Positions 19,050 through 49,785 of a DNA stretch of 64,000 bases are shown here, one piece after another. The DNA is from Lepiota brunneoincarnata. Its lineage: Eukaryota > Basidiomycota > Agaricomycetes > Agaricales > Agaricaceae. The DNA lies in contig JAEBUN010000001.1 in the NCBI GenBank assembly GCA_023014365.1, forward strand, positions 806,001 to 870,000, given 5' to 3'. A program made the translations under genes and the position numbers. The notes under the pieces are model-generated. The model worked only from the letters and a program-made list of their open reading frames with translations, ran no database searches and had not been told where the DNA came from. Position 1 is the stretch's first letter; every line of letters begins with the position of its first letter.

Positions 19050-19342
19050 GAGAGATGCAGAGGAGAACAGAAGTTGAGGACTTTAGTCTGGTGCTGGGAC
19101 TGTGATGGGAGGAACATGTAGTATTTTACTTATATAGTGGGTTGCTGCCATTTACAGTGTCCAAATTCTCCACTACAAGTTGTTGGTAGTGTCGAGCACT
19201 CTGCTGGTTTGGGTCCTCAAGTATTGTTTCCACTTCCACTTCTGTTTTTTGTTATTATTACCAGGAGTATATAATAGGCACAGACAAAGATTTGATACCC
19301 TCGTGCATTTGCGACAGGTCCTTGTATTTTTCTGCTCTGAAT

Positions 19343-28758: not shown

Positions 28759-30033
28759 ATGTCTGAAATAATCTCTTTAAACTGCATGGTTTCGGAGACG
28801 GCATCGACCGTATCTTCTCCATAGAAATCGAAGCCTCAAAGAAATTCAGCAAACTCAAGGAAGCCATCAAGGACAAGGAAAGCGCATTTCACGACTTGGT
28901 TCCTCGCGACCTGTAACTCTTCAAGGTTGCTATTCCTGTATATGGCCCCTTCAGTTATAAGATAGAGCAGTGGAATCGCTTAAATCAACGACCATTGTTG
29001 CCAGTCAAAAGAGTGTGTTCGCCCTTTCCGCATGTGAAGGACGAGGAGCTCCATATTATTGTCAAAGTCCCAACTGCCGGCGAGTCCCTTCACGGACCCC
29101 TAATGATAACGCCCAACTTACGATTCTTCTCATAGCCACCCTCCTCTGCCTTGTTGGTTGCGTACTAGGGAATGACGAACAGGATGTCTTCGAAGTCGAA
29201 ATTCGCTGGGGAAAATCTGTATTGACCCTCAAGGATGCTATCAAGGAGAAGAAGAAGCCTCAGCTCGGCCGCGTTCCCGCTGGCTCTCTCATTCTCTGGC
29301 AGATTTACAATCCCATCGATGACCACCTCAAAGGAACCGCCGAGTTGAATGAAGAAGATGGCGCTACCCAACTTATCAACCCCACTGAAGCCTTATCGCA
29401 CTACTGGAAAGAACTTCCCAGGTATATCTACTCTTCGGATCCCGAACTTGGAACTCGACCCCTACCCGTTTATCCGAGAATACAACTCAACCAAGTTCAC
29501 ATACGTGTCACACCTCGCTCACAAATACCCAAACAATGCATGGTACAAGGGCAGAGCTCAACAACTCCACCCATCTTGTGGTCGTGAAATTCGTGTTGTT
29601 GGAATACAATATAAAGGCTCACCGTCTTCCGGCTCAACACCAATTGGCGCACATCTGCACTATGTTGACATGGAGGAGCCCGAAGCGCAAACGTACGATG
29701 GGCGATACACTGCTCGTGATGGATTTCATCGATGGGAGCCAGAGGGCTCGGGTGTTCCCACTGAATCCCAGTTCGCCAAGGTCGAGAGAGCGATCAGATT
29801 GTTACATTTATAGGATCCTCGTGTTTGGAGAGCTTCAACCATCCCAATATCCTGATCCGAGGCGAGACAGTCATGCTCACTGACTCCAGTTGGTGTGGCA
29901 TAGCGGGTAGGACACGCTATCCTACAAGCCTCACTCGTGACGTTGAATTTAGGCTAGGGCGGAGGGTGTGAGATGGGGCTTCTATTATGAGAAAGGAGCA
30001 TGACGAATTATGTGATTGGATCAGCTGAAGCAC
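28759..30033 (+). pseudogene. Decayed Crinkler-type effector with kinase domain
   Basis: Starts MSEIISLNCMV and reads on, after a one-base slip, as GDGIDRIFSIEIEASKKFSK and LKEAIKDKESAFHDLVP, the ubiquitin-like Crinkler header. A stop (TAA) interrupts it near 28915. A second header follows at 29150-29420 (NDEQDVFEVEIRWGKSVLT, LKDAIKEKKKP, VPAGSLILWQIYNP). It is joined almost directly to a kinase remnant: KFTYVSHLAHKYPN, LVVVKFV, LLVMDFIDG, FGELQPSN and a DSSWCG-like metal loop. Compared with the intact paralogue at 36009-37921, the nuclease-like middle is missing, the catalytic Asp of the GDLRxxN loop is Glu, and at least five frame breaks occur. Non-functional as a kinase, probably a dead gene. 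Confidence 0.75.
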
Positions 30034-30166: not shown

Positions 30167-31869
30167 CTAGCTGTCCACAGCGGCTCTCCTCGCATCATAC
30201 CACACCCTCCTCACCCACCTCCTCCTTCGGGTCACGCTTCCACTCCCAGCAGTATACGGCCCAGGCCGTGGTCCCAGCCACATATCATTCGTATACACCC
30301 ACCCATCTTCATCCCCTCCACTCTCGGTCCATCCAGCTTTGAGATCCTTCCTCCAATCCTCCGTCTCGACAAACGACCACCCGGGACCAAGCGAAAATGT
30401 TAAATTACTGCTATAACAGGGTCCATGAATCAGCCGCCATCATACGATCGACCGATGGAAAACGAGGCGAGCCAAGGGATAAATCACGAACCTGATCTCA
30501 TCCTCCGGTCCAATACCCGTCCACCCATCCATCCCCCTAGTCCAAGCACTCCTTTCCTCGAGTTTAAGATTCTGCTTACTCCATCCCTGTCCGTTTGATT
30601 CCGTTACTGGCACCGACCCCTCGTATCTCTCATTTTCAAACAGCTCGACCTCGCGCATCTCGGCGCTCCAACAATCATCCGTCAGTCGGTCATTGTCGAT
30701 GATCCGTTCAAGGGTGGTTTGGATTGGCAGGTCGAGGAATTTGACTGCGTTGGGGCTGACTCGTTGTATGAAACTTTGGTAGCGCTTGGTTAGGATGGGG
30801 AGGTGTTCGCGGGTGTAGATGAGGATGTGGGGTGCGAGAGCGCGAATGGTGGGGTGGGTTGCGATGAAGGGTGCTAGACCGATAAAGAGGGCGACTTCGC
30901 GGATGGGGAAGGAGGGGAGGTTGATGATGAAGAGAATGGGAAAGAATGTGATGACTAGGAGGGTAAGAATGTGTGGGGTATAGGGAGAGCGCGTTGTGGG
31001 TGAGGCGTACGGGGAGATGTTGGTTGTTGAAGAGGTGAGGTGTGCGGGGGATAGGCAGAGGTGGTAAGTGTATGGTGTGGCGAGGGTGGTCATATCAGCG
31101 CTGGAGTGGGGTGAGTAGAGGTATATGATGTGGCGATAGAAACATACACAAAGCCCATAAGATTTTGGATGCCCTGTAGGTTAGCCTGCCACACAACCGT
31201 GCCCTCGACCGGTTGGGCTGGAGTAGGTGGGGGGCTCGCTGTCGTTGAGTCCGTTGCATTTGAAGCATAAGGATAAGAAGAGAGGATTATTGCAATTAGA
31301 GCAGCATGGGGTATGAGGAGAATCATCCTTGGGAAATAGCCTGCACACGGTCAGGATGATGCTAGTCTTCAGGGTCAAAATTTGAACATACAAAGAAACG
31401 CGTAGAGCGCCATCCATGCGGTCGTTCGTTTCCACCCGCGTTTCCAGAGAACGATCTCCTCTACTCTATCCTGGAGCCAAAATACGGGCCCAACTCTTGC
31501 GACGAAGCGCCTGAAGTTGTTGGACATGATAGGGAGTGAGAGGGGATCTCGAGATGACAAAAGGGTAACCTTCTCCGGCTCGATCTTTTTGCGTGGGCTT
31601 GTTGGCGATGAAGGTGCAGCGCCCGGAATAGGTGTCGGTAGAGAACCTATCAACATCTGGGGCAGAAGCGCCATCGTCTGGGATGCCAACGAACCAGAAG
31701 GCGCAGTTGAGTTGGATCTGGGACGAGGGTCCGGTGGCGGTGATGGGTTGGGTAGCGAGGTCGGTATTTTTTGTGCTGGCTGGATATCTGAGCCATTGCT
31801 TGTGGATGCTGAGCGTAGTCTTGTTGCTGCTGGGGGAATGTCTATGTAGTCGAGAGTAGCCATGGTCAT
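30167..31869 (-). CDS. Peroxisomal membrane protein, PEX30/Pex23 family (dysferlin domain)
   Basis: Integral ER/peroxisome membrane protein that shapes ER subdomains and controls peroxisome number. Starting at 31869 (MTMATLDYIDIPPAATR), a Ser/Pro-rich N-terminus leads to the family block NNFRRFVARVGPVFWLQDR, TTAWMALYAFLC and, across an intron, YFPRMILLIPHAALIAIIL. A further intron near 31094-31140 leads to MTTLATPYTYHLCLSP. Two hydrophobic helices follow near 30900-30960 (ILTLLVITFFPILFIINLP). The C-terminal dysferlin domain shows ELFENERYEGS, KLEERSAWTRGMDGW, GPGWSFVETEDWRKDL, DEDGWVYTND and VTRRRRWVRRVWYD. Stop at 30167-30169. All exons keep frame. Two decayed partial copies lie at 19.4 and 27.9 kb. 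Which of PEX28-32 it corresponds to cannot be told. Confidence 0.9.
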
Positions 31870-32284
31870 CGTACGAGCGCTAGTTATACACGTGATTACT
31901 GATTGAATATATTGGAAAAGTGTACCAACGCTCACCGACATCTTGATAGAACGTACTGCGCCGAATCTACAATCATGTTGGGATCACCGTACTACACTCT
32001 AGCCTCCTACAAATTCCTAGAAGCGTTCAGAGTTCAATATGTTCGAACCAAGAACACCCACTCCCCCCTTTCCGACTCCCTACAATGTCCTCATTTATAC
32101 TCCGTGGGCAATACAAACAGGACAGGATTACAATTATCCTGCTGGTTAGTTTAAAAACTCTTTTCCTTGGAGACGATGGTCACCTGGTTGCTACTTCAAG
32201 CGCTCGTGCTTATATTAAATCTATCACCCCACACGAGGGATTTTGTCTTCACTCACTTCCACCGCCGGACGGTCTGACTTGAGG
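31870..32284. promoter_or_regulatory. Divergent promoter region, PEX30-like and membrane copy B
   Basis: This 415-bp gap separates two genes reading away from each other. TATTAAA at 32213-32219 stands about 66 bp before the ATG of membrane-protein copy B and is conserved in position in the other array copies. No separate gene is seen. Confidence 0.45.
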
Positions 32285-33000
32285 ATGGTAGTCGATTGTC
32301 ATCTTGGAGGATCTCCCCTCATCCTCAACAAAGAAATCAGTTGGTTCATCGGTCTGATTCTTTCGGGCATGTGTTATGGCGCACTTCTCGCGCTCGGGAT
32401 CACTTTTCTGGGACTACTGAACTCTCCACCATCCCAAGGCACTCATAAACAGCGTCGCCTGTTTCAGGGACACATTGCCGCTCTGCTTTTGTTCAATACT
32501 TTTATACAAGCCAGGGATATCACAAGAACAACAATCGCCATATTCAAAACGGACCCGAAGTCTCTCACCCATTTCCATCTCGTTCCCTCCAACATCATAA
32601 TTGTACTCATCGCACTCTTGACCGATGGACTCCTGGTAAGTGATGATCACCTACATATTACGACTCATGATTTGTGAATGTAGGTTTGGCGGTGCTACAT
32701 GGTTCAGAGGGCTCTTGTAACTACTCGTCCCGCACGCTTGCACCATCTCTTCTGGGTCTTCCTGTCATGCTTGCTAGCCACCTCAGTAGGTTAGTTCCCC
32801 GCTTCCATGTCAATCCAACTACCATCGCTATTCCTCACTACCAGCTGCCACAGGGACAGCCTCAATCATACTTGGAGATCCCAACTTACCCTTGGTGGAA
32901 AGGCAGGACCCTATCCAAGCTTTGTTGGCTACCGTAGCAGCATCAACCAATATCGTGCTTAACATATTTGCAACAGCCTATTTGCACCATGTCTGCCGGA
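32285..33000 (+). pseudogene. Seven-helix membrane protein, copy B (chimeric, truncated)
   Basis: Begins MVVDCHLGGSPLILNKEISW and matches the intact copies through exon 1 (CYGALLALGITFLGLL, LTDGLL), exon 2 (VWRCYMVQRALVTTRPARL) and the first part of exon 3 (LGDPNLPLVERQDPIQALL, NIVLNIFAT). At about 32985 it jumps at CCTATTTGCACC into sequence that belongs to decayed family members elsewhere in the array (for example 39805 onward). The helices encoded by the rest of exon 3 and exon 4 are lost. This looks like unequal recombination between a good and a decayed copy. Confidence 0.75.
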
Positions 33001-33480
33001 ACTGTTCCCTATTCTTCCTAGTCTCAGTCGGCCAGTGCCTTGATCTACATAATATCAATCCACTGCCCCCCATAGCCACTTCTGTAGCTACAGGGATTGC
33101 CCCCCACCCCACCCGGGGCTCCAAGCGCCTTTATCAGATGAGCCAGATCACGTCCGAACCTGCTTAGCTAGCGAAAACGCAGTCTTCAAAGTCCTCCTCA
33201 ATATCCTTACGACTCTCAATACCATAATTTGGTTGCTTGTATGTAGATACATACACCAGCACCCAGTGGTCTCACCCTTCGGAGCTACAAACATCCCCGC
33301 TATCCAAAACTAATCACAAACTTATTCTGATCGTTGCGGGTTGTCTTTCCGATGGCACAGGGCCTCTGGACGGCATTTCTAGTCATTTCTAGTCGAGGGT
33401 CGTCGTATGAGCGCTAGTCCTACATAGTGATTACTGATTGAATATGCTCATCTTGATGAAATTTATCGCGCCCAGTCTAT
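32985..33480 (+). pseudogene. Decayed membrane-protein copy joined to copy B
   Basis: Sequence similar to 39805-40080 and 43940-44250: the order CACCATGTCTGC, AGCCAGTGCCTTGATCTA, GGGATTGCCCCC, TTTATCAGAT recurs in all three. It is a remnant of the 3' half of the membrane gene with multiple stops. Nothing else was found up to copy C's promoter. Confidence 0.6.
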
Positions 33481-33804
33481 AATTAGTTCAATCATGATTG
33501 GATCTATACTGGTCGCCCTAGCCGCCTACAAATTCCTGAGTTTACCCTCCGTTTGATAAAACACCTACCTTTCTGACTCCTTACAACATCTTCCTATCTA
33601 CACACCTCAGGACATCTGCGCCGGGTGAAGCTACAAGTGGACGGGATCGGTGTTATGGTGGATAGTTCCGAGAATCTTTGTCCCTGGAAACGATAAAGTT
33701 AGCTGGTTGCTACTTCCAGCGCCCGTGCTCGTATTAAAACGTTTTATTCCACACAGCTACTTTCGCCCTCACCCATTTCTACCGCCGGACGGTCTGGTTT
33801 GAGG

Positions 33805-34863
33805 ATGACGACCGACTATCAACTTCAAGGATCTCCCCTCACCCTCAGACAAATGGAGATCAGTTGGTCCATTGGTTTGATTCTTTCGGGCATGTGTTAT
33901 GGCGCACTCGTTGCGCTTGGGACTGCTTGTCTGGGACTACTGAACTCTCCACCATCCCAATGCACTCATAAACAATACCGTCTGCTTCAGGGACATATTG
34001 CCTGCTCTGCTTTTGTTCAATACTGTTCTGCAAGTCAGGGATATCACAAGAACAACAATCGCCATATTCAAAACGGACCCAAAGTCCCTCACCCATTTCC
34101 ATCTCGTCCGTTCCAATATCCTAATCGTCCTCATCGAAATATTGACCGACGGACTCCTGGTAAGTGATGATGACCACCTACATATTACGATTTACGATTT
34201 GTGGATGTAGGTTTGGCGGTGCTACATGGTCCAGAGGGCTCTTGTAAATACTCGTCCCGCCGACTTGCATCATCTCTGTTGGGTCTTCCCGTTATGCCTT
34301 GCTAGTCACTTCAGCAGGTTGGTCCTCCCCTTTCCATGTCAGTACGACTATCATCGTTATTCATCACTGCCGGCAGCCACAGGGACCACCTCGATCAGTA
34401 CTTGGAAACCCCAACTTACCCCTGGTAGAAAAGCAGGACCCCACCCAAGCTTTGTTGGCTGCCGTAGCAGCCTTGGCCAATATCGTGCTTAACATCTTTG
34501 CAACTCTCAACATCATAATCCACTTACTTCTCCACCGGCGCTCAATGATTGCATCATTCGGAGGTTTTCCTTCACTATCAAAAGTTCAGCTCCCAATCGT
34601 GGGAATCCTTCTGGAATCTGCTGCGATCAATATACCCATCACCATTCTTGCCGTTGCAATCTCTTTACCCTTTAATGGCGGTCCCTGGGCGCCGGTTATG
34701 GGAGCCGTTGTTCCTGCTCAGGTCGGTACCTATCTTTGAAATTTAGTCGTCCTGTGTATTCAGCCCTGATTGATAGTCAATTGGCTCTATATCCGTCATT
34801 TATCAAGTTGCGAGGGGAAAAGCTGTTAGCGGGAAAGGGAAAGACGTCGAGAGTGGGAGCTAG
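33805..34863 (+). pseudogene. Seven-helix membrane protein, copy C (frameshifted)
   Basis: Full-length by alignment with the 296-residue intact copies, from MTTDYQLQGSPLTLRQMEIS to the last exon SIGSISVIYQVARGKAVSGK and stop TAG at 34861-34863. Introns sit at the same places (about 34159-34210, 34318-34376 and 34723-34776). Three single extra bases break the frame: GCCTGC near 34012, CCTTGC near 34294 and ATCAGTAC near 34400. Reading around them restores the family sequence with few substitutions. It is therefore either a young pseudogene or an intact gene with sequence errors. TATTAAA at 33732-33738 is conserved upstream. Confidence 0.65.
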
Positions 34864-36008
34864 CACAGGCTCTTCTATTTGTGGTAGACAGTATAACAGC
34901 GAGTGCCGAATCACTGATGAGTTTATTCAGGATGGCATCGACCGAATCAGATGCGACCACCTCCCACTGTATCCCCCCAACCATTCGGCCATCGCTCCGC
35001 ACAACATCGTCTAGCCGTGACCTACGATATCAATATAGCCAATCCCTGGAGACAAACTCATCAATGCCTATCAACAAACGGGGTGATTTTCGATTAATAA
35101 AGGTTTATTTGGCCTTAGAAATGATGAAATCTCCTGGAATGTTCGTGCCCGGGTCAAGCATATGCTGTGGGGCAGGCCATGCTCTATTCAGCACAGCCTC
35201 TATTTCACTCGAGCTCATTTCATCACAGGACATTGTAGTGCGAAGATGACAATTAGTTACCACATTGGATCTCCTCTCACCGAACACGAGATTGACTTAT
35301 GACTGTCAGCATTTGTTATGGTGCAATGGCCGGGCTTATAAGCCTTCCTCCATTTTGCAGGTCAGGCGATGTTGCATGGTTCAGGGGGCTGTTGACAATG
35401 ACCATTCAACCTGTTTGCATCGTGTCTGCCGAATTTTTTCTCCATTCCTTCTACTCATCCCAGTCGACGAGTGCCTTGATCCCACACCAATCCCCACCCC
35501 TCAATAACCACTTTGATGGTTATGGGGATTGCCTCTAATTCGGGACTCCAAGCCGCCTTTATCGGAAGAACCAGACCACGTCCAATATCATATACCATTT
35601 GCTTTGATACCGGTAATCAGTGGTCGCATTCTTCGGAGGTACATACATCCCCGCTATCTAAAATTCAGCTCTCAACGTAGGAAATCCTCCTGGGATCCAC
35701 TGAGATCAATGTATTTGTAACTACAATCTTATTCCGATTGTTGCAAGTTGTCTCGTCGGTGGTATGGGCCTCTGGGCGATAATTCGCGAGATCCTTATCC
35801 CGGCTGAAACCAGTCACTTTATCGGGTTATGAAGGGGACAGGTATTAGCGGTGAAATGCGGCGACAAGTTTAGCGCTGCTCTCCTAATCATGTAGCAACT
35901 ATCGTATATTATACTTACACAAGCCCGGAGAGGGGAGGAGGGGAAAACAGATTTCTATCTGCTGGCCATGCTGACAAATCAGTTGCGCTCGCTCTTTTCC
36001 ACCACCAC
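34864..36008. pseudogene. 3' flank and decayed membrane-protein relic before the Crinkler gene
   Basis: The first 350 bp are the 3' flank shared by copies C, D and E (GATTCAGGATGGCAT-type sequence, then GGGGTGATTTTCGATTAATA). From about 35240 to 35850 is a decayed family member in which fragments such as GSPLTEHEID and SGDVAWFRGLL can still be read. Comparable relics follow copies D and E. The last 150 bp directly precede the Crinkler-kinase start and also recur near 46700-46780. Confidence 0.55.
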
Positions 36009-37921
36009 ATGCCTACCACTACAGTTTGGTATCGCCTCGTCACTGGGGAAAACGTACTCCCGGGGACGTCCCTCAGCCTAGAAATTGAGAAAAATGTTGC
36101 AGAGTTGGTAGTGAAAGTCAAGGAACAGAATGCAGCCATCCTCCAGCATGCCGCCCCCGCCCAGTTTATTGTATGGCGATGCAAGGACAGATCGATTGTT
36201 CTCAACGGCGGGAACTTGGGGGATCATGTTAGGGGGATCTTCTCAAACGGGGAGGCTGAAAAGCTCGATGGGAGGGACACGTTCGCAGATCTAGCGGTCT
36301 CGGCAACGGAGACACTGCTTGTGCAAGTGCCCGGTGCGTTTCCACCTTCCTCGTGCAATTATATTATTCTCAGGTGATTCATTATCAGCTGTGCGGATAC
36401 CCGAACTAGAGACAGGCAAGCGGAGGCTAGAAGCGGAGGACGCCGTCAGCAAGCGTCAGAGGTTCAGTGAAGGTGAGAATCAGATATGCTCAATCCCATA
36501 CTTGTTGATTACAGCGGAGCTTAGCTCAGGAGCATGATGTTGCGGCTGCTCGCATGGCCCTTCCTCCTTCTTCTGCTGCAGCAATGCCGGCATTTCGACA
36601 CGAACAAGACAAAAGACCGGTCCTTAACGGTCGCCCGCACGATAAATTTGGTCTTCCCGTCGGCCTATTTCATCCCGTATTCAACTCTTTCTATACTGCC
36701 ATGAGAAACCAGGAGTGCTTGTGTGCAGGTGCAGCGACGTATTCCTCAGTGAGGGCCCTTTTCACAGCCTTTGCGAATATTTATGACACGGAGGCTCAAC
36801 GGATTACTGCAATCGACAAGCATTTAGTCCCCCTCCTCGGAGACGCATTTGTCAACGTGGAGGTACAGGGAATCAGAAGCGATGGGGTGATAATCGAGTC
36901 CTGTGGCCCTTCCACCGCGTATCTGTTAGTACGAGAGGTCAAAAATGAAATTGGAACGGGTAGCGCAGATCCCTACAACCAGGGTAGTCTCACTTATCGC
37001 AGATACTGGGCAGAGGCACCTCGTAAGGGACTGGTCCGCGTTCAGAATTGCTTCGCTGATACGCACCTACTTGAAGGTGTCATCAGAGACCGTTGCCATT
37101 GCCCAAGCTTCATTCTGGCGATTGCGGGACCATGGTTGTGTGTCCTTGGTGGTGTTTACCTTCAGAAGGCGGTCGTACAACCTTTAACGGACTATGTCTG
37201 GCTTGGTGGCGACAACTTCAACGATGAGCGATTGCTCTTTGCTTCACGACTGTTTACTGCCTTGAGGTCTGCCATTTCCAGCCTTCGGTCATACTACAGG
37301 GCTCTCCAACCAAGCCTCTTAAATCCAATCCCACAAGACCTAACATCTGAATTTCCGTTTATCACACAATACGGGTCGAAGAAGTTCACGTACCTGTTGC
37401 GCCTTGCTCCGGAATACCCAAACAAACTATCATACAAGGCCACGCTTGACCACGAGCGCCGTATGGTGGTTGTGAAGTTTGTATCGACATACCATGCACA
37501 GGCCCACCGCATTCTGGCCGAGCATAAACTGGCGCCGGTCCTCCACTATGCCAGTACCGAGGATACTGAAGCATCAATGTATGGCGGACGATATATGATA
37601 GTGATGGATTTCATTGACGGAAAGCCGGCGGTGGGTTCTCTCCCCAAGCACCAATTCAAACGGATCGAGCAAGCGATACAGCTGCTTCATTCGCAAGATC
37701 TCGTGTTCGGTGACCTTCGATCCCCGAATATTTTGGTCACGGATAAGAATGCTATGATCATTGACTTTGATTGGTGTGGAAAGGCGGGGGAAGCGTGTTA
37801 TCCTGCTAATATGAACACTGCTGAAGAGCTTGGTTGGCCCGAGGGTGTTGGGCCAGATTCCATCATGATGAAGGAGCATGATCTCTTTATGTTGGAGAAA
37901 TTACGGTCCCACAGCATTTGA
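36009..37921 (+). CDS. Crinkler-type effector: header + PD-(D/E)XK-like nuclease + protein kinase
   Basis: Three exons (36009-36333, 36374-36472, 36525-37921) join in phase to a 606-residue protein without frame breaks. Residues 1 to about 115 form the ubiquitin-like Crinkler header (WYRLVTGENVLPGTSLSLEI, KLDGRDTFADLAVS, ETLLVQVPG). A basic linker with KRQRF follows. Residues about 225-330 look like a restriction-endonuclease fold: D261 in SDGVI, E279-x-K281 in LVREVKNE, then DPYNQGSLTYRRYW with a conserved Gln. Residues about 425-600 are an atypical kinase: Lys459 in VVVKF, VMDFIDG, catalytic D538 and N543 in GDLRSPNIL, metal-binding D555 in DFDW. Crinkler-class proteins are known from oomycetes and fungi as effectors or intergenomic conflict proteins acting in the nucleus; this protein's role is inferred only. 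No signal peptide is seen. A decayed paralogue (28759) and a kinase-only fragment (42266) lie nearby. Confidence 0.85.
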
Positions 37922-37928
37922 ATAGTAT

Positions 37929-38545
37929 TTGTTTGAAATGCCGTTTTGCTCCCTCTACTTGGTCTGCCTGACTGATGGAACTGCCTATCCTGTGGCAAAC
38001 ATTATTCAAGCACTATTTCCTAGCCACCCACCATCGCCTATGGTCGAGCAAGAAGCAGTCGGACGCGGCATGAATGGGTCGGAACCCTTTTTGTGCGACT
38101 GCCCCAACGTGACACAGACGCCCAAACCTCGTTCTTTCCTCTATGACTTTGAAGCCGGCCCGCCTGGGCAAGACGCCGCGCTCAACATCTTGCAGCGATC
38201 TTTTGACTCTATGGAGCGGTAGATATGGAGCTACTGTTGTCGACGTTTGTGGTGAACCTATTGGAAGACTTGAAGAACCACACAATTTTGATTGATCGAT
38301 GTGGTGATCTCGTCGGTCTGCTGAACAATCTGACAGTATCGACGACGACGAGGGTGGCAGTGTTTGATATCATTACAATCATTACCTAGGACACCGCAAC
38401 AGGAATCAACGGCAGCTAGCGCGGAGAGTACAGCTGTACTCTATGATATCCTCAATTCATTCCCTTGTTTATCACACAGTCTGTGTGTACAGTACATCCC
38501 TGCTATCCAAAATCCAGCCCCTACCGCAGGAATCCTATAAATTAC
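37929..38545 (+). other. Conserved downstream segment of the Crinkler unit
   Basis: Follows the kinase stop and is repeated after the kinase fragment (42773-43390). A 97-codon frame here (37929-38222) contains PPSPMVEQEAVGRGMN and GPPGQDAALNILQRSFDSM. The second copy has a stop within it, and a second short frame (LLEDLKNHT, DRCGDLVGLLNNL) is broken here but open there at 43060-43431. This could be a 3' UTR or the remains of a small adjoining gene. I do not recognise the protein. Confidence 0.4.
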
Positions 38546-39240
38546 TGAAGAGTAATTAACCCTTCTAAACACGAAATGAATGCGAGCACGATCGAGTCCA
38601 ACAATCGTTAGGCTTCAAGACCGACCAGGAGTGCCCACGGAGTCAAAGCGATGTAAGAACAAGGTGAAACAAGTGGTGATTTCGAGAAAATGAGGCAGAC
38701 AAATATTTTTAGAAGAGTTAAAGTTCGAGAGTTAATGAGAGCGATTTTAGACGAGCTAGAGTGCAAAAGATGGACAGTAAATTGACTGGTCTTTAACTAC
38801 AGGTTGTACAGGCCTTAAATACGAAAAATTATGGATTTTTTGATGAATATTTCGGAGCAGGAAGAAGATAAAAGAAGCAATCTCAAAAGCAAAAGTAAAG
38901 TACAGTAAGACAACCTAAAACAAACACGAAACAGGGGTTAAATATATAGAGAATACAAGTACATTACCATGACAGTGTGCAAGATGTAGAGAGGGATAAG
39001 AGAAGGAAATAGATTCATGGTACAACGAGACGAGACAGGAATGAAGAATTAAACATAAATTTCAAAACTAGAAGGTTGAAAAGAGGGGGGAATGGAGACA
39101 ATAGATACTTAGTCCAAGATATGAATGGGTAGCTCGACGACAGGCACTCCAAACGTCGTTAGCGATCCGGTTAATTAGAATCACAAGAGATTGATGAGAG
39201 GTTGCCGTTTTCATGGGCAACCGAACTCACAATCTCTACA
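38546..39240. mobile_element. Probable solo LTR (695 bp, TG...CA, target duplication TTAC)
   Basis: AT-rich element starting TGAAGAG and ending CTCTACA, imperfect inverted ends, flanked on both sides by TTAC (38542-38545 and 39241-39244). The sister repeat unit at about 43370-43400 lacks it: CCTATAACCTACTGCAATC runs straight across the point of insertion, while here CCTATAAATTAC and TTACTTCAACC are separated by 695 bp. No coding sequence inside. It contains AAATATATAG near 38940, a possible TATA element. The features fit a solo LTR of a retrotransposon; the internal parts are not in this window. Confidence 0.7.
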
Positions 39241-40418
39241 TTACTTCAACCAATATATCCCTACCCAGAACCTTATTCCGACCGCTGCAGGTTGATCCTG
39301 TGAGCATTTATCTCACCCGGATCAGGTCAGAAAACGCTACAGAGTTCATTAGCCCATGCTCTTGTGAGAACCTGTATATTGTGTTGGATCGTTGGTCGGT
39401 TTCTTCGGGATGGCATTAACCGGATCAGATGCAACCACCTCCTGGCGCACTTCCCGGGTATTCAGCCATCGTTCTGGATAACGTCCCTCAACTGCAACAT
39501 ACAATGTGCTCACAGCCTACCCCTTGAGACAGAATTTGCAGGGAGTCTGAACGCCTTAACGAGCGGGGTGATTTCGATTAATAAAGTATATACATTGAGG
39601 GGAGCTATGCTCTATCCAGTTTCACTCGAACTCACTTCATGGCAGGATGGCGTAATAATTACTGGATCTCCCTTCACCGAACAAGAGATTGACTGGATTA
39701 TTGGTCCGATTGTCAGAGACATATTTTATGGTGCGAAGGGCCGGGCGTATAAAATTTCCACCTATCATTTAGGTCTGACGATGTTACGTGGATTATTCAA
39801 CCTATTTGCACCGTGTCTGCGGTAGCTGTTCCTTATGCCTCCTAGTCTCAGTCGAGCCAGTGCCTTGATCTAATATCAATCCATAGTACATACTACCCTC
39901 CATAAACACTTTGGTAGCTACGCGGGATTGCCCCCACTCGAGACTCCAACCAGCCTTTATCAGATAAGCCAGATCGCACCCAAACCTGCATAGTTACTGA
40001 AACAGCGGCCTTCAAAATCCTCCCTAACACCCCACTAATCCTACACATGATTACTGATCATCTTGATGAAATGTATCACCCCAAATCTAAAACTGATTCA
40101 ATCATAATTAAACTATACTAATCAACCTAACCACCTACAAATTCCTGGATTTACTCCCCGTTCGATAGAACACCTGCTTTTCTGACTCCTTACAACATCC
40201 TCCATCTACACTACACACCTCGAGACAGTTTCTGCGGGAGGCGCTACAGAGGGACGAGATCAGTGTTTGCTGGTGGATAGTTCCGAGAATCTTCGTCCTT
40301 AGAAACAACGTAGCTACCTTGTTGCTATTTCAAGCCCTCATGTTCGTATTAAAACGCTTTAGTCGACACAGCTACTTTCTACCTCACCTTTTCTACTGCC
40401 GTACAGTCTGGCTTGAAG
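39241..40418 (+). pseudogene. Decayed membrane-protein relic and promoter of copy D
   Basis: 39290-39600 matches the 3' flank of the membrane genes (GGATGGCATTAACCGGATCA). About 39640-40080 is a decayed gene copy in which TGSPFTEQEIDWIIGPI can be read before stops accumulate. 40200-40418 is the conserved 5' flank of copy D with TATTAAAA at 40347-40354. The corresponding stretch before copy E (43430-44564) has the same order. Confidence 0.6.
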
Positions 40419-41474
40419 ATGATGACCGACTATCAAATTCAAGGATCTCCCCTCACCCTCAGACAAATGGAGATCAGTTGGTCCATTGGTTTGATTCTTT
40501 CGGGCATGTGCTATGGCGCACTTGTTGCGCTTGGGACTGCCTGTCTGGGACTACTGAACTCTCCACCGTCCCAAGGCACTCATAAACAGCGTCGTCTGCT
40601 TCAGGGACACATTTCTGCTCTTCTTTTGTTCAATACTGTTCTACAAGTCAGAGATATCACAAGAACAACAATCGCCGTATTCAAAACGGACCCAGAGTCT
40701 CTCACCCATTTCCATCTCGCTCGTTCCAATATCATAATCATCCTCATCGAAATATTGACCGACGGACTCCTGGTAAGTGATGATGACCACCTACATATTG
40801 CGATTTACGATTTGTGGATGTAGGTTTGGCGGTGCTACATGGTCCAGAGGGCTCTTGTAACTACTCGTCCCGCAGGCCTGCATCATTTCTGTTGGGTCTT
40901 CCCGTTATGCCTGCTAGTCACTTCAGCAGGTTAGTTCCCCATTTCCATGTCGATACGACTGCCATCGTTATTCCTCATTACCTGCAGCCATAGGGACAGC
41001 CTCAATCATACTTGGAAACCCCGACTTGCCCTTACTAGAGAAGCAGAGCCCCATTCAAAATTTGTTGGTTACTGTTGCAGCCTTTGCCAATGTCGTGCTT
41101 AACATCTTTGCAACTCTCAATATCATAATCCGCTTACTTCTCAACCGGCGCTCAATGATCACATCGTTCGGAGGAACTTCTTCGCTATCAAAAGTTCAGC
41201 TCCCAATCGTGGGAATCCTCCTGGAATCTGCTGCGATCAATATACCCATCACCATTTTTGCCGTTGCAGTCTCTTTACCATTTGGTGGTGGTCCCTGGGC
41301 GCCGCTTATGGGAGTTGTTGTTCTTGCTCAGGTCGGTGTCTATCTTCTCTCATTTAGTCGCCCTGTATACTCAACTCTTGTTGGAAGTCAATTGGCTCTA
41401 TATCTGTCATTTATCAAGTTGCGAGGGGAAGAGCTTTTAGTGGGAAGGGGAAATATGCCGAGAGTGGGAACTAG
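40419..41474 (+). CDS. Seven-helix membrane protein, copy D (intact)
   Basis: Four exons in consistent phase give a 296-residue protein. Exon 1 (40419-40772) runs from MMTDYQIQGSPLTLRQMEIS to LTDGLL, exon 2 holds VWRCYMVQRALVTTRPAGL and FPLCLLVTSA, exon 3 holds LNIFATLNIIIRLLLNRRSM and PIVGILLESAAINIPITIF, and exon 4 holds SIGSISVIYQVARGRAFSGK, stop at 41472-41474. About seven hydrophobic helices and a short cytosolic tail are visible. The family is widespread in Agaricomycetes and has no known biochemical role; a receptor-like layout is possible but no GPCR motif is seen. Conserved TATTAAA about 70 bp upstream suggests all array copies share one promoter type. Nearly identical to copy E, so duplication or gene conversion is recent. 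Confidence 0.85.
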
Positions 41475-42265
41475 CACTGGCTCCCCTATTTGTAGTAGAC
41501 AGTATAACAGCGGGTGCCGAATCACTGGTGAGTTGATTCAGGATGGCATCAACAGAATCAGATATGACCACCTCATATTGTATCCCCCTAAGTGTTCAGT
41601 CATCACCCCAGCACATGCTGTTTAACTGTGACCTATGATGCTGTCATGGCCTATCCCTCGAGACAAATACATCGATGGCCATCAACAGATGGGTGATTTT
41701 TGATTAATAAAGAATGTTTGGCCTTGAAATGATGAAATCGCCTGGAATGTTCGCCCCCGTATCAGGTATGTGTGTTGGGCAAGGCCATGCTCTATCCAAC
41801 ACAATCTCTATTTCACTCGAGCTCAGTTTATCACAGGATATTGTAGTGCGAAGATGACAATTAATTACCATGTTGGATCTCCCCTCACCAAGTGAGAGGT
41901 TGGCTGAGCATGGTGCGATGGTTGGGCTTATGAAACCTCCATCATGCAGGTCTGGTGATGTTACATGGTCCAGGGGGCCGTTGTCAACGACCATTCAGCC
42001 CATTTGCATCGTGTCTGCCGGATCTTGTCCCCATTCCTCCTAGTCGCCGGGTGCCTTGATCCCATATCAATCGGCCGCCCTTCATAACCGCCCCGAAGGC
42101 TACGGGGATTGCCTCTATCTCATTCGGGCTCCAAGCCGCGTTTATCGGAAGAGCCAGGTGACGTCCAAATCTGCTCAGCTACCGGGACAGCCCTCTTCAA
42201 AATTCTCCTCAGTATCTTTGTGACTCTCAATATCACAAACAGTTTGCTTTCACACGGGTAATCAG
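41475..42265 (+). pseudogene. 3' flank and decayed membrane-protein relic
   Basis: After the shared 3' flank of copy D there is a decayed family member at about 41857-42265 with SGDVTWSRGPL-like remains, closely matching 45997-46410 and, more distantly, 35240-35650. It is cut at 42265 (GGTAATCAG), where kinase sequence begins abruptly. Confidence 0.6.
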
Positions 42266-42765
42266 ACAAACTATCATACAAGGCCACGCTTGACCACGAG
42301 CGCCGTATGGTAGTTGTGAAGTTTGTATCGACATACCATGCACAGGCTCACCGCATTCTGGCCGAGCATAAACTGGCACCAGTCCTCCACTATGCCAGTA
42401 CCGAGGATACTGAAGCATCAATGTATGGCGGACGATACATGATCGTGATGGAGTTTATTGACGGAAAGCCGGCGGTGGGTTCTCTCCCCAAGCACCAATT
42501 TAAACGGATCGAGCAAGCGATACAGCTGCTTCATTCGCACGATCTCGTGTTCGGTGACCTTCGACCCCCGAATATTTTGGTTACGGATGAGACTGTTATG
42601 ATCATTGACATTGATTGGTGTGGAAAGGCGGGGGAAGCGTGTTATCCTGCTAATATGAACACTGCTGAAGAGCTTGGTTGGCCCGAAGGTGCTGAGCCAG
42701 ATTCCATTATGATGAAGGAGCGTGATCTCTTTATGTTGGAGAAATTACGGTCCCACAGCATTTGA
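42266..42765 (+). pseudogene. Kinase-only fragment of the Crinkler gene
   Basis: From ACAAACTATC at 42266 the sequence is nearly identical to 37422-37921 of the intact gene, down to the shared stop. Header, nuclease-like domain and the start of the kinase are missing, so no normal start codon remains; an internal Met lies at 42307. Kept are VVVKF and GDLRPPNIL, but the metal-binding loop reads DIDW instead of DFDW. The upstream junction is an abrupt join to a membrane-gene relic, indicating a deletion of roughly 1.4 kb relative to the full unit. An open frame of 152 codons persists, so a short product cannot be excluded. Confidence 0.75.
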
Positions 42766-44564
42766 ATAGTATTTGTTTGAAATGCCGTTTTGCTCCCTCT
42801 ATTTGGTGTGCCTGACCGATGGAACTGCCTATCCTGTGACAAACATTGTTCAAGCACTATTTCCTAGCCATCCACCATCGCCCATGGTTGAGCAAGAAGC
42901 AGCCGGGCGCGGCATGAATGTGTCGGAACCCATTTTGTGCGACTGCTCCAACATGACACAGATGCCCAAACCCCGTTCTTTCCTCTATGACTTTTAAGCC
43001 GGCCCGCCTGGGCAAGACGCCGCGCTCAACATCTTGCAGCGATCTTTTGACTCTATGGAGTGGTAGATATGGAGTTACTGTTGTCGATGTTTGTGGTGAA
43101 CCTATTAGAAGATTTGAAGAACCACACGATTTCAATTGATCGATGTGGTGATCTCGTTGGTCTGCTGAACAATCTGACAGTACCGAACAGGATGAAAGCG
43201 GCAGTGTTTGATATCATTGCCCAAGGAATCGCGTCAGGATTAACGGCAGCTAGCGCGGAGAGTACAGCTGATATCCTCAACTTACTCCCTTGTTTATCAC
43301 AAAGTCTGCATGTACAGTACATACAGTACATCCGCTGTGCGAGGTCCGGCCCCCGCCATGGGAATCCTCCTATAACCTACTGCAATCAATATATTTTTAA
43401 CCACGATCTTGTTTCCATCGTTGCAGGCTGATCCTGTGAGCATTTATGTTGCCTAGATCAGGTCAGAAAATAGTACAGAGTTCATTAGCCCATGCTCTTG
43501 CGAGAACATGTGCTATGTGTCGAATTGTTGATCAGTTTCTTCAGGATGGCATTAACCGAATCAGATGCAACCACCTCCTGGCGCACTTCCCGGGTGTTCA
43601 GCCATCATTCTGGATAACTGCAACTTACGATGTGCTCGCGGCCTGCCCCTTGAGACAGAACTTGCAAGGAGTCGGAATGCCCTTGACGAGCGGGGTGATT
43701 TCGATTAATAAAATATATACATTGGGGAGAGCCATGCTCTACCCAGCACAACCACTGCTTCACTCGAACCCGCTTTATGGCAGGATGGCGTAGTGAAAAG
43801 ATGATGATTGATTACTGAATCTCCCTTTACCGAACAAGGGGTTGGCTGGGTTATTGTCTGATTGTCGGAGGCATGTGTCATGGTGCAAATGGCCAGGCAT
43901 ATTAATTCCCACACATCATTTAGGTCTGATAATGTTACACGGATTATTCAGCCCATTTGCCTCATGTCTGCAGGAGCTGCCTATTCCTCCTAGTATCAGT
44001 CGAGCCAGTGCCTTGACCTAATATCCATCCATGCTGCCCTTCATAACCACTTTGGTAGCTACAGGGATTGCCCCCACCCCGCCCGAGACTCCAAACAGCC
44101 TTTATCAGATAAGCCAGATTGCATCCAAATCTGCTTAGCTACTGAAACAGCGGCCTTTAAAGTCGTTCCCAACACCCCACGAGCACTAATCCTACACTTT
44201 GTTATCGATCATCTTGATGAAATGCATCGCAGGTCTATAGCTGGTTTAATCATGATTGGGTCTGTGCTGGTCGCCTAGCGGCCCTACAAATTCCCGAGTT
44301 TTACTCTCCGTTCTATAGAAGACTTATTTTTCTGACTCCTTACAACATCCTCCATTTATACACCTCGGGAAAATTTTGGTGGGGAGCGCTACAGAGGGAT
44401 GGGATCAGTGTTTGCTGGTGGATAGATTCGAGAATCCTCGTCCTTGGAAACGGCGGGGTTACCTGGTTGCTATTTCAAGCCCTCGTGTTCGTATTAAAAC
44501 CCATTGTTCGACATAGCTACTTTCGCCCTCACCCATTTCTACCGCCGGACGGTCTGGCTTAAGG
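42766..44564 (+). pseudogene. Repeat-unit spacer with relics before copy E
   Basis: 42773-43390 duplicates the segment after the intact Crinkler gene. 43430-43790 is membrane-gene 3' flank, and 43800-44250 a decayed copy with many stops. 44350-44564 is the 5' flank of copy E with TATTAAA at 44492-44498. A 123-codon frame at 43060-43431 (VVNLLEDLKNHT, DIIAQGIASGL) is open here but broken in the sister unit. I do not recognise its product. Confidence 0.5.
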
Positions 44565-45619
44565 ATGACGACCGACTATCATCTTCAACAATCTCCTCTC
44601 ACCCTCAACCAAACAGAGATCAGTTGGTCCATTTTTTTGATTCTTTCGGGCATGTGTTACGGCGCACTTGTTGCGCTTGGGATCGCCTGTCTGGGATTGC
44701 TCAATTCTCCACCATCCAAAGGCAATCATAAACAGCGTCGTCTGCTTCAGGGACACATTTCTGCTCTTCTTTTGTTCAATACTTTTCTGCAAGTCAGAGA
44801 TATCACAAGAACAACAATCGCCATATTCAAAACGGACCCAAAGTCTCTCACCCATTTCCAACTCGCTCGTTCCAATATCATAATCATCCTCGTCGAAATA
44901 TTGACCGACGGACTCCTAGTAAGTGGTGATAATTCCCACATATTGCGATTTACGATTTGTGAGTGTAGGTTTGGCGGTGTTACATGGTTCAGAGGGCTCT
45001 CGTAACTACTCGCCTCGCCGGCTTGCATCATTTCTGTTGGGTCTTCCCGTTATGCCTGCTAGTCACTTCAGCAGGTTAGTACCCCCTTTCTATGTCAGTA
45101 CGACTGTCATCGTTATTCATCACTACCGGCAGCCACAGGAACAGCCTCAATCGTACTTGGAAACCCTAACTTGTCCTTGCTAGAAAAGCTGAACCCCACC
45201 CAAGCTTTGTTGGCTACCGTAGCAGCCTCTGCCAATGTCGTGCTTAACATCTTTGCAACTCTCAATATCATAATCCGCTTACTTCTCCACCGGCGCTCAA
45301 TGATCACATCGTTCGGAGGAACTTCTTCGCTATCAAAAGTTCAGCTCCCAATCGTGGGAATCCTTCTGGAATCTGCTGCGATCAATATACCCATCACCAT
45401 TTCGGCCGTTGTAGTCTCTTTACCCTTTGGTGGTGGTCTCTGGGCACCGCTTATGGGAGTTGTTGTTCCTGCTCAGGTCGGTATCTATCTTCTTCCATTT
45501 AGTCGTCCTGTGTACTCAACTCTGGTTGGAAGTCAATTGGCTCTATATCTGTCATTTATCAAGTTGCGAGGGGAAGAGCTTTTAGTGGGAAAGGGAAAGA
45601 TGCCGAGAGTGGCAGCTAG
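44565..45619 (+). CDS. Seven-helix membrane protein, copy E (intact)
   Basis: Exons 44565-44918, 44969-45074, 45133-45476 and 45533-45619 join in frame to 296 residues. It starts MTTDYHLQQSPLTLNQTEIS and ends SGKGKDAESGS. Helices include SGMCYGALVALGIACLGLL, HISALLLFNTFL, SNIIIILVEIL, FCWVFPLCLLVTSA, ANVVLNIFATLNIIIRLLL, VGILLESAAINIPITI and a C-terminal SIGSISVIYQVARG. No catalytic motif is visible. All splice sites are GT-AG with normal 50-60 bp introns. This is the cleanest copy and is the best reference for the decayed members of the array. Function unknown. Confidence 0.87.
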
Positions 45620-47392
45620 CAACTGGCTCCTCTATTTGTGGTAGACAGTATAACAGTGCCGAATCACTGATGAGTTGATTCAGGATGGCATCAGCAGAAT
45701 CGGATGCGACCACTTCACATTGTATCCCCCCAAGTGTTCAGCCATCACCCCAGAGAACATTGTCTAACTGTGACCTATGCTACCATCATGGCCTATCCCT
45801 CGAGACAAATACATCGATGCCTATCAACATACGGGGTGATTTTCGATTAATAAAGAATGTTTGGCCTTAGAAATGATGAAATCACCTGAAATGTTCGCGC
45901 CCGTATCAAGCATATGTGGTGGGCAAGGCCATGCTCTATCCAGCACAACCTCTATTTCACTCGAGCTCAGTTTATCACAGGACATTGTAGTGCGAAGATT
46001 ACAATTAATTACCACGTTGGATCTCCCCTCACCAAGTGAGAGGTTGGCTGAGCATGGTGCGATGGTTGGGCTTATGAAGCCTCCATCATGCAGGTCTGGT
46101 GATGTTACATGGTCCAGGGGGCCGTTGTCAACGACGATTCGGCCCATTTGCATCGTGTCTGCCGGATCTTTTCCCCATTCCTCCTAGTCGCCGGGTGCCT
46201 TGATCTCATATCAATCCGCCGCCCTTCATAGCCGCCCCGAAGGCTACGGGGATTGCCTCTGTCTCATTCGGGACTCCAAGCCGCCGTTTATCGGAAGAGC
46301 CAGATGACGTTCAAACCTGCTCAGCTACCGGGACAGCCCTCTTCAAAATTCTCCTCAGTATCTTTGCGACTCTCAATATCACAAACAGTTTGCTTTCACA
46401 CGGGTAATCAGCTGTCGCATTCTTCGGAAGTACATACATACATCCCCGCTATCCAAAATTCAACTCTCAACCTAAGAATCTTCCTGGGATCCACTGCGAC
46501 TAACGGATTCCTAACCACAAACTTATTCCGATCATTGCGGGTTGTCTCGCCGGTAGCATGGGCCTCTGGGCAACATTTCTGGAGATCTTTATCCTGGCTG
46601 GAGTCAGTATCTGTTACTTGTCAGGTTGTGATGGGGACAACTACCAGCGGTGAAATACGGCGAACAGGGTTAGCACTGCTCTCCAGGTCATGTTATAACT
46701 ATCGTATATTGTACTTGCGCAAGCCTAGAGAGGGGAGGAAAACAAATTTCTATATGCCAGCCGTTGCCTGAGAAACGCTCACTTAGCACGTGTCTTAATA
46801 ATGGTTCCTTAATAATCCACCACAAGCGCCAAGTGTCAAAGTTTATTCGGCTCCGACACCGTGTTTGGAGTCTTGGTCCATTATGTATAGGGGCAGGAAA
46901 CAATGCGTTCGCTGGCCTCCTGCTGGGCGATGAGCTGCGTGCTCGGCCAGAAGCACGAGAATACCCGACATGGACTTTCGGTAGCCTGGGAAAAGACATA
47001 CGGGGAAACAGAATCAGAAGGCCAATGTCCTGGGAGCGGCTATGAGAGGGAACAAGAAGCACCATGTTGTGATATGTATCGTCAGTTGGATGGGGGTCCT
47101 GAGAAATAGTAGAGCTTGAAGTTCTATTTTAAACAATAGGGTAGCGATTAGGCGTCGAGGCCTCCCCTTATTACTTGGTATATCTCGGATGTTGATATCC
47201 CATGCCGCCGAATAATACATGACACGTGGGAACCGCCTATCCTGTGAGCATTTATGTCACTCGGATCAGGTCAGAAAGTAGTACGGAGTTCATTAGCCCA
47301 TGCTCTTGTGAGAACATGTGTTGTACGAGGGATTGTGGCGTGTGGTGGGCGACGACTGCCCCACGCCCTCGCCTTGCCCTCTCCTTAGGACC
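45620..47392 (+). pseudogene. End of the array: relics and unassigned DNA
   Basis: 3' flank of copy E, then a decayed membrane gene at about 45997-46600, then sequence at 46680-46780 matching the 5' flank of the Crinkler gene (compare 35870-35960). The Crinkler gene itself is absent and 46780-47220 is unassigned. 47225-47320 repeats the CCTGTGAGCATTTATG segment seen at 39296 and 43433. The array stops directly before the first lactate dehydrogenase gene. Confidence 0.5.
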
Positions 47393-49785
47393 ATGCACTC
47401 TTCACAACGATTTCTTCCACTCGGGCGTTGTTTGGCAAAGTCTCTAGCTCGCAAACCCCAGCTAACAAGGGCTTGCCGACCTCGCCTATACTCTATCCAA
47501 GGAGATAACGCGGGACGCAGCAATTCACGCTTCACAGAGACTCGTTACTCGGCGTGGCTTACCCGGAACACTCTTCTCGTCTTGGGGTCACTGGCCAGTG
47601 GTCTGGTCGGTTATGAACTTGCTCAATCCAAACAAGTTTCCCCATCTATCTTGACAAGCCCCAAGTACGGCACCCCCAAAGACTTTCAACGAGCGATAAG
47701 AGAACTTCAAGAGACTTTCGGTCAGGATGGGAAGGGGGAGGAGGATCTTGTTTCGACGGATCCTGCTATATTGCATGACCATGGGTTTTCCCCTTTCGTC
47801 TATCACGAAGGTCAGACCAGTCACATCTACGATGAATAACATGGTTTATGCTTATTTTGTGTGACTAGGCTTGACCCACAGCGTGGTTGTGTTTCCTCGA
47901 TCAACAGAAGATGTCGTCAAAATCGTCAAAATCGCTACGAAATATCGCATGCCCGTAATCCCGTATTCGGGGGCTACCAATCTGGAGGGGCACACTCGCG
48001 GTGTAGGGCCTTTCAATGTTCTCAACTCCTTACGTTAACCGACCCCCGATCTATCACCATATCAGTATCCTGGGGGCGGCATCTGTATTGACCTTTCAAA
48101 TATGGACAAAATCTTAGAGATTCACGGCATGTCCCGTTTTTTTGGAGAGCCAGATAGACGCTGAATCCATGACCGATTCTCAGAGGCGGACTCGGACGTG
48201 GTGTGCCAGCCTGGCGCGAGATGGGTGGATATTAATGAAGAACTGAAAGAAAAAGGTTCGTTTGCACGGCGGAATAGAAGACAACGGTTGACAGGCGTTC
48301 TTCCTCAGGGATCCCGCTGTTCTTCCCTGTATGTATTAGTCATATATGACGCGAACGACTCTGATCCGCCCATAGCTCGACCCAGCACCGGGAGCGACCA
48401 TCGGCGGTATGCTAAGTACAGGATGCTCGGGTAGTAAGTCGCTTTAATTTTTATACTCATAAGGCGCTGATTGAACTTGTCCTCAGCGAACGCTGTTCGC
48501 TATGGTACCGCGAAAGCCGAGTGGTTTCTGAATGCTGTGAGTGCACCCGGATATGTTAGTTGTTGAAATCTCGTACTCAGTCAAAATAGACAGTGGTACT
48601 GCCATCGGGCGAGGTGATCAAGACGAGACGGAGGTCTCGCAAGTCATCCGCCGGATTTGACACTACGAAGTTGTTCATTGGTGCTGAAGGGACCCTTGGC
48701 ATCGTGACCGAAGGTGCGTGATATGCTTCGTTCTGTTGTCAACCCCCATGAGCTGAGACCGGCTTAGTGACTATCAGGCTTGCGCCCGTACTACCTACAA
48801 CGGTTGCATTAGCAAATTTCCCAGACGTGAAGAAAGCCACGGAAGCTGTCGTTGAGATCCTCAACCAGGGTGTTGGAATTCGTACGTGCTTACAATCATG
48901 TTACCTTACCCCCCTGTACCTCATCCTACTCATTTTGCTATTCACAGAATGCATTGAGCTTCTAGACAACGTCTTCATTGGCGCACTCAACACGCATGGT
49001 TTTTCGGGCCGGAGATATGCTGACAAGGACTATCTATTCTTCAAATTCCAAGGTCCTACCCAGGCCTCACTAAAGGAAACAGGCGCGATAGTGAAGAAGA
49101 TTGTAGAGAAACATGGCGGGAAAGACTTCGAGTTCGCGAAAGATCAAGAACAGGCTGAAGCTATGTGGAATGAACGGAAGAATGCCCACTTTGCTGGTAT
49201 GGCTTTGAAACCAGGCTCAAAGGGCTGGCCGACAGATGTTTGGTGAGTAAAGTGGTCCATATCGTCCTCTACGCCGTAGGCAAGGGATTCTGATACTAAA
49301 TTGCAGTGTACCTGTATCAAAACTTCCTCAACTCGTGTATGAAACCAAGAAAGATTTGCAGGCCATTGGCTTGATTGCGCCGATCGTGGGGCATGTAGGA
49401 GACGGCAACTTTCACACCCTGGTTCTAATGGATGGTGAGAAGGAACTTGAAGTTGCAAGAGAGGCTGTCCATAGAATGGTCCAAAGAGCTATTGCGCTAG
49501 ATGGAACATGTAGGTGGTGTTCCGCTATTCTCTTGTGCCGAAATGCTGAAACGTTTCCCAGGTACGGGAGAACACGGTGTTGGTGTCGGAAAGAAAGAGT
49601 ACCTTGTGGAGGAGCTTGGAGAGGGTACAGTAGAGCTTATGAAGACCATTAAGAGGGCTATTGACCCGTTGGGCCTATTCAATCCTGGAAGGTAACTCCG
49701 TGGTCCTAAGTACAGGAGAATTCGACTGACAAGACAATTGTAGTTATACCCTGATCCTTCCCCTCCATCGGAAAACCGCCACTAA
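47393..49785 (+). CDS. DLD1: D-lactate dehydrogenase (cytochrome), copy 1
   Basis: Mitochondrial FAD enzyme oxidising D-lactate to pyruvate with electron transfer to cytochrome c. The start [20 protein letters not shown] is an arginine-rich targeting sequence, followed by a hydrophobic anchor [17 protein letters not shown]. The FAD-binding domain has [29 protein letters not shown] (usual family form SGGT, so Gly to Ala here), PGATIGGM and [11 protein letters not shown]. The C-terminal oxidase domain has [12 protein letters not shown] (metal-binding histidines) and [19 protein letters not shown], then NPG and LYPDPS. About eleven introns fit, one of them GC-AG (48127-48183). One base seems missing at the last donor (near 49693), which would otherwise extend the C-terminus in another frame. 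Tandem paralogue at 53058. Confidence 0.88.

What the first reader, a model, noticed from the sequence alone, without database searches (positions are those of the whole stretch)
32200..47320. Tandem array co-amplifying a seven-helix membrane protein with Crinkler-kinase units
The order membrane gene, decayed membrane gene, Crinkler-kinase (or fragment), spacer and 5' flank recurs about three times with shared flanks and promoters. Two membrane genes are intact (296 aa each) and nearly identical, while others decay. The repeated linkage of a membrane protein with a nuclease-kinase effector might be a functional pair (for example sensor or immunity partner with effector) or just a passenger duplication. 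I know of no description of such a pairing.
Basis: partly seen in the sequence, partly recalled or inferred. Interest (0 to 1): 0.75.

Follow-up and report, generated by a model that had tools for sequence, protein, structure and literature searches.

The report
Mushroom receptor-gene array with passenger Crinkler
A mushroom-family fungus carries a decaying tandem array in which a GPCR-like membrane gene was copied together with a neighbouring Crinkler gene; the repeats are real, but the evidence points to accidental co-copying rather than a working two-gene system.

Summary
Window 32140-47320 is a tandem array of four units plus an edge fragment, at 82-87% DNA identity (92% in the Crinkler part). 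Two four-exon, 296-aa membrane genes are intact, 263/296 identical, so not "nearly identical". The other two copies are truncated or frameshifted. One 606-aa Crinkler gene is intact; another survives as a 3' kinase stub; a third slot keeps only its 5' flank.

The functional-pair reading fails the tests available here. No unit holds both an intact membrane gene and an intact Crinkler. None of 14 other Crinkler loci found in the genome lies within 20 kb of the membrane family. Three fetched 10-kb Crinkler loci contain no membrane-gene match. In the two other species where searches found both families, they sit on different contigs. The membrane protein has a GPCR-like predicted fold.

Most likely: passenger co-duplication, a Crinkler carried along with a tandem-prone receptor-like gene and then mostly lost. 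One anomaly remains: the three closest Crinkler paralogues lie 23-27 kb from membrane clusters (3 of 14 within 30 kb against 2 of 80 P450 loci), a post hoc regional signal.

The parts
32140..33413 (+). Unit 1: membrane gene copy A (starts 32285), fused at 32974 to relic sequence of the family, so truncated; no Crinkler match found
   Evidence: blastn self-comparison, gene model, tblastn
33805..35011 (+). Unit 2 membrane gene copy B, pseudogene: single-base insertions in exons 1, 2 and 3 relative to copies A, C, D
   Evidence: alignment of the five copies; model breaks
35109..35962 (+). Relic sequence of the membrane family directly upstream of the Crinkler; related stretches at 41717-42262 and 45861-46757
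36009..37921 (+). Intact Crinkler gene, exons 36009-36333, 36374-36472, 36525-37921, 606 aa; keeps 54 of 54 residues invariant among 18 aligned homologues
38546..39240 (.). Solo LTR-like insertion (TG...CA ends, 4-base TTAC flanking repeat); 27 other places in the genome at 84-99% plus one partial at 70%; with it set aside the Crinkler 3' flank runs into the next unit as at 43345-43400
39241..40035 (+). Start of unit 3: sequence related to the membrane gene's 3' flank and to the other relics; recurs at 43378-44172 and as a fragment at 47239-47320
40419..41474 (+). Unit 3 membrane gene copy C, intact: exons 40419-40772, 40824-40929, 40988-41331, 41388-41474, 296 aa; keeps 18 of 18 residues invariant in 14 homologues
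42262..43322 (+). 5'-truncated Crinkler: 167 codons of the kinase plus 3' flank, 92% identical to 37419-38497; at 42262 the upstream relic is joined to about kinase codon 440
44565..45619 (+). Unit 4 membrane gene copy D, intact: exons 44565-44918, 44969-45074, 45133-45476, 45533-45619, 296 aa; keeps 18 of 18 residues invariant in 14 homologues
46374..47238 (+). Unit 4 Crinkler slot: 5' flank kept to 46757 (its counterpart ends 47 bases before the Crinkler start codon in unit 2), then single-copy sequence; no Crinkler coding match
47239..47320 (+). Right edge of the array: an 82-base fragment of a further unit start, beside the next gene

Best explanation
Passenger co-duplication. A Crinkler gene came to lie just downstream of members of a tandem-prone, GPCR-fold membrane gene family. 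Unequal exchange between homologous membrane-gene stretches then copied a block of roughly 6 kb (relic, membrane gene, relic, Crinkler) head to tail (inferred from the shared unit borders). Afterwards the units decayed independently: the membrane gene survives in two units, the Crinkler in a third. Shown: the repeats, shared borders, intact and broken genes, and no tight linkage in the other loci examined. Inferred: the mechanism, and that the two genes act separately, the membrane protein as an orphan receptor-like protein and the Crinkler as an intracellular nuclease-kinase of the CR REase-kinase kind.
For: Repeats share borders across units. The intact Crinkler sits with pseudogene B; intact membrane genes C and D sit with a Crinkler stub and an empty Crinkler slot, so no unit keeps the pair. 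Of 14 other Crinkler loci found in the genome, 0 are within 20 kb of a membrane-family match; the same distances mean 0 of 13 membrane intervals outside the window have one of these loci within 20 kb. Three fetched 10-kb Crinkler loci hold no membrane-gene match, nor do the further 20 kb on C10 up to 158 kb. Several membrane intervals are multi-copy (C58, C10, C1:948-955k), so tandem growth does not need a Crinkler. In Leucocoprinus leucothites the contig lengths differ (Crinkler 3,759,449; membrane 907,604 and 425,688), as in Leucoagaricus sp. SymC.cos (Crinkler, only 34% identical, 209,095; membrane 87,059). Macrolepiota fuliginosa gave 18 membrane hits, six on a 71,555-base contig, and no hit among the 47 Crinkler homologues.
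Against: The three Crinklers most like this one lie 23-27 kb from membrane clusters; 3 of 14 within 30 kb, where 1.35% of the genome qualifies (binomial P 0.0008, post hoc), against 2 of 80 P450 loci and 1 of 88 NACHT and 1 of 31 DUF6534 matches. The intact Crinkler and intact copy C are only 2.5 kb apart. The kinase stub has no stop inside and a low dN/dS (0.29, bootstrap 0.09-0.69), so it is not plainly neutral. The homologue searches score capped candidate lists, so linked members in other species could have been missed.
Confidence: 0.85

Rival explanations
1. Functional pair: the membrane protein senses a cue or holds the Crinkler inactive (sensor or immunity partner), and the two were amplified together because they work together.
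For: Repeated linkage in one array; regional proximity of the three closest Crinkler paralogues to membrane clusters; membrane protein has a GPCR-like predicted fold, compatible with a sensor.
Against: No unit keeps both intact; 0 of 14 other Crinkler loci within 20 kb; 0 of 2 other species share a contig; many membrane hits and no Crinkler hit in Macrolepiota, and Crinkler hits in many Agaricomycetes without a membrane hit (capped lists).
Confidence: 0.05
2. Shared compartment (can be true alongside the best explanation): both families prefer the same fast-changing regions, so they meet more often than other genes, and this array is one such meeting.
For: 3 of 14 Crinkler loci within 30 kb but 0 of 14 within 20 kb; the stretches fetched between them are not copies of each other; LTR insertion and duplicated neighbours in the window.
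Against: P450, NACHT and DUF6534 matches do not show it (2 of 80; 1 of 88 and 1 of 31); the two C58 loci are not independent.
Confidence: 0.35
3. Selection for dosage or diversity of the membrane gene drove the amplification, with the Crinkler as ballast (a special case of the best explanation).
For: Two copies intact, C-D dN/dS 0.41 (0.26-0.70); multi-copy clusters elsewhere.
Against: Two of four copies in the array are broken; comparisons with them give the same ratio (0.33-0.40), so it may mostly reflect time before breakage.
Confidence: 0.3

Closest known systems
CR (Crinkler) effectors of the REase-plus-kinase type (review PMC5289972, passages seen, after Zhang et al. 2016, not read)
   Same: Full-length homology to Agaricomycete proteins, of which 12 of 18 scanned match the Pfam Crinkler header and 18 of 18 a kinase at E up to 0.1; a conserved E-x-K stretch ahead of the kinase (its reading as a nuclease motif is recalled, not profile-tested)
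   Different: The window gene's own header exon matched no Pfam model and is not in the genome list for PF20147; role not known
Fungal GPCRs and candidate GPCRs (class D Ste2; DUF6534 candidate class, PMC12842992 section 3.5)
   Different: No Pfam match for the two window models; among 15 homologues only two weak single matches to unrelated families; the DUF6534 search of the genome lists nothing at this array; no sequence match to solved structures
Tandem gene arrays made by unequal exchange with passenger genes (general knowledge)
   Same: Shared unit borders, head-to-tail order, mixture of intact and decayed copies
   Different: Nothing tested sets it apart

Membership tests
Crinkler (CR) proteins | N-terminal ubiquitin-like CR header (PF20147) | tested here: inconclusive
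   Window header exon alone: no Pfam match, not in the genome list; 12 of 18 full-length homologues match at E up to 0.1, best 5.3e-10; closest homologue P0018 at 0.076, under the cut-off
Crinkler (CR) proteins | C-terminal kinase domain | tested here: met
   18 of 18 homologues match PF00069 at E up to 0.1; the window's exon 3 matches at 1e-5, 25.5 bits, under the curated 31.7; the family profile matches PAK4 chains at 1.8e-7
Crinkler (CR) proteins | REase-superfamily nuclease domain with catalytic residues | not tested
Fungal GPCRs | Seven-helix GPCR fold | tested here: met
Fungal GPCRs | Coupling to a heterotrimeric G protein | not testable with these tools
   needs an assay
DUF6534 seven-helix family | Match to PF20152 | tested here: not met
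   No match for C or D (E up to 1, earlier models with wrong tails), none for 15 homologues (E up to 0.1); 31 genome matches, none at the array, one 2.5 kb from the membrane cluster on C10
Dedicated effector-immunity or sensor-effector gene pair | Conserved adjacency of the two families outside one duplication | tested here: not met
   0 of 14 Crinkler loci within 20 kb; 0 of 2 other species share a contig
Dedicated effector-immunity or sensor-effector gene pair | Both members kept intact together | tested here: not met
   No unit has both intact; the intact genes do remain neighbours, 2.5 kb apart, across a unit border

The most novel reading that the evidence does not exclude
The GPCR-fold membrane protein and the Crinkler are parts of one system (for example a receptor that releases or restrains a nuclease-kinase), tolerating loose linkage of 20-30 kb at other loci and split across units here.
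Probability: 0.05. Interest if true: 0.8.

Novelty: new member of a known kind. Interest (0 to 1): 0.25.

Why it matters
It shows how an apparent two-gene cassette can arise from tandem copying and how to test it: unit integrity, genome-wide adjacency with control families, and contig sharing in other species. As a by-product it describes a tandemly expanding family of GPCR-fold proteins without a Pfam model, found mainly in Agaricaceae in these searches, which may deserve a place among candidate fungal receptors.

Tried and rejected
Three-exon models of the membrane genes (365 and 323 aa) were rejected: homologues show a further exon, and the corrected models have GT-AG introns and 296 aa. 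The wrong models were the queries (whole) and, cut to 319 aa with the last 51 residues in the wrong frame; the 365-aa form was also in the tblastn. The genome clusters were found again with homologue P0011, except the weak ones on C28 and C78:1-8k, which rest alone.

A segmental duplication as the cause of the 23-27 kb spacing was not supported: the fetched stretches on C58 and C10 do not resemble each other beyond the two families and local repeats. Fetched were 20 kb on C10 and 10 kb of each C58 interval, so not all of it.

dN/dS as a test of function of C and D is weak, because comparisons with broken copies give the same ratio. Window Crinkler against the C10 and C58 paralogues: dN 0.25-0.36, dS 1.8-3.0, too saturated for a ratio; the paralogue pieces contain 0-4 in-frame stops, introns or decay. 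Families missing from the VIA-align list are not excluded.

A paper pairing Crinklers with seven-helix proteins was not seen in the listings (3 papers; 4; 2; 15 listed of 37; 8 listed of 19); this is no proof that none is in print.

Counts. Of 117 P450 matches (92 of 467 candidates scored) I kept 80 by hand, dropping second exons, close neighbours and some likely allelic copies, not uniformly; one dropped row near a membrane cluster is a second exon of a counted locus. All 88 NACHT matches (88 of 277 candidates scored) and all 31 DUF6534 matches were used. For Crinklers, 16 places were reduced to 14 loci (C55/C69 with equal scores once; two C7 places 8 kb apart once); the window's own two were left out. 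For the 54 invariant residues 18 of 47 homologues were aligned; for the 18 residues 14 of 17 (P0003, P0015, P0017 left out).

Full report
The window lies at C1:806001-870000 of an unnamed 55.6-Mb, 95-contig genome. The best named relatives of its proteins are Agaricaceae: Macrolepiota fuliginosa for the membrane protein (45%) and Leucocoprinus leucothites for the Crinkler (62% over the whole length).

Array anatomy. Self-comparison shows four units head to tail on the + strand. Unit 1 (32140-33413) has membrane copy A, fused at 32974 to relic sequence. Unit 2 has copy B (33805-35011), a relic (35109-35962) and the intact Crinkler (36009-37921). Unit 3 starts at 39241 with relic sequence, then intact copy C (40419-41474), a relic, and a Crinkler reduced to its last 167 codons and 3' flank (42262-43322). 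Unit 4 starts at 43378 with relic sequence, then intact copy D (44565-45619), a relic, and the Crinkler 5' flank (to 46757), followed by DNA that matched only itself in the genome. An 82-base fragment of a further unit (47239-47320) ends the array. A solo LTR-like insertion (38546-39240; 27 other places at 84-99%, one partial at 70%) interrupts the border between units 2 and 3; with it set aside, that border aligns with the border between units 3 and 4.

Genes. The membrane genes have four exons with GT-AG introns and code for 296 aa in both C and D; the proteins share 263 of 296 residues and each keeps 18 of 18 residues invariant in 14 homologues. Copy B carries three single-base insertions and copy A is truncated. 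C against D: dS 0.146, dN 0.060, ratio 0.41 (bootstrap 0.26-0.70); introns differ at 22 of 164 positions. Ratios between A, B and the other array copies are 0.33-0.40, so the figure does not separate live from dead copies. The Crinkler has three exons and 606 aa and keeps 54 of 54 residues invariant in 18 homologues. The kinase stub differs from it by 11 synonymous and 12 non-synonymous changes (ratio 0.29, bootstrap 0.09-0.69), and 51 of 560 positions differ in the 3' flank.

Is it a pair? Within the array no unit keeps both genes. In the genome, membrane-family matches form 13 intervals outside the window (my grouping), several of them multi-copy, and Crinkler matches form 14 loci outside the window. 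None of the 14 is within 20 kb of a membrane interval, and three fetched 10-kb loci around the closest Crinklers contain no membrane match. In other species, Leucocoprinus leucothites has membrane genes on contigs of 907,604 and 425,688 bases and its Crinkler on one of 3,759,449; Leucoagaricus sp. SymC.cos has them on contigs of 87,059 and 209,095, its Crinkler being a distant one (34%). Contigs are told apart by length only, and the protein searches score a limited set of candidates, so further members may exist. Macrolepiota fuliginosa gave 18 membrane proteins, six of them on a 71,555-base contig, and none of the 47 Crinkler hits.

Result against this reading. The three Crinklers closest to the window's own lie 23.1, 24.2 and 27.3 kb from membrane intervals. 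Three of 14 within 30 kb, where 1.35% of the genome qualifies, gives a binomial P of 0.0008; controls are 2 of 80 P450 loci, 1 of 88 NACHT and 1 of 31 DUF6534 matches, from lists that were partly capped. The cut-off was chosen after seeing the distances, two of the three are on one contig, and the stretches between that I fetched are not duplicates of each other. I read it as a shared compartment or an old loose linkage, not as a cassette.

Verdict. A real, decaying tandem array in which a Crinkler travelled with a tandem-prone receptor-like gene. Passenger duplication is the best explanation (0.85).

Noticed in passing
window 17880-19076: A further, more distant member of the membrane family about 13 kb upstream of the array, with a frameshift near the end of exon 1 and Q for the invariant E of the ESAAIN stretch; likely a pseudogene.
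   Followed up: partly
window 28961-30010: A second, distant Crinkler: header matches PF20147 at 5.2e-13, followed by a kinase-like stretch with stops.
   Followed up: partly
G000 C10:134k, C58:1304k, C58:1447k: The three closest Crinkler paralogues lie 23-27 kb from membrane-family clusters, more often than control families; unexplained.
   Followed up: partly
G000 C10:329664-342448: A DUF6534 match, the membrane cluster at 332-339 kb and a NACHT match lie within 13 kb of each other.
   Followed up: no
window 47559-49698 and 53230-55348: Tandem duplicate at 77%; a frame of the second copy matches FAD-oxidase_C. D-lactate-dehydrogenase type is my recalled guess.
   Followed up: no
window 20050-26258: Several local duplications: 20050-20247 vs 21769-21963 (95%), 21582-21949 vs 25306-25678 (70%), 22460-22941 vs 25784-26258 (69%).
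   Followed up: no
window 30440-31983: Left neighbour on the minus strand: two frames match the Pex24p peroxin model weakly, under the cut-off.
   Followed up: no
window 13990-14239: Shares 91-92% with part of C10:138001-148000; probably an interspersed repeat.
   Followed up: no
G000 assembly: Pairs of contigs give equal scores in family searches (C55/C69, C43/C50, C35/C44), which looks like retained second haplotypes.
   Followed up: no
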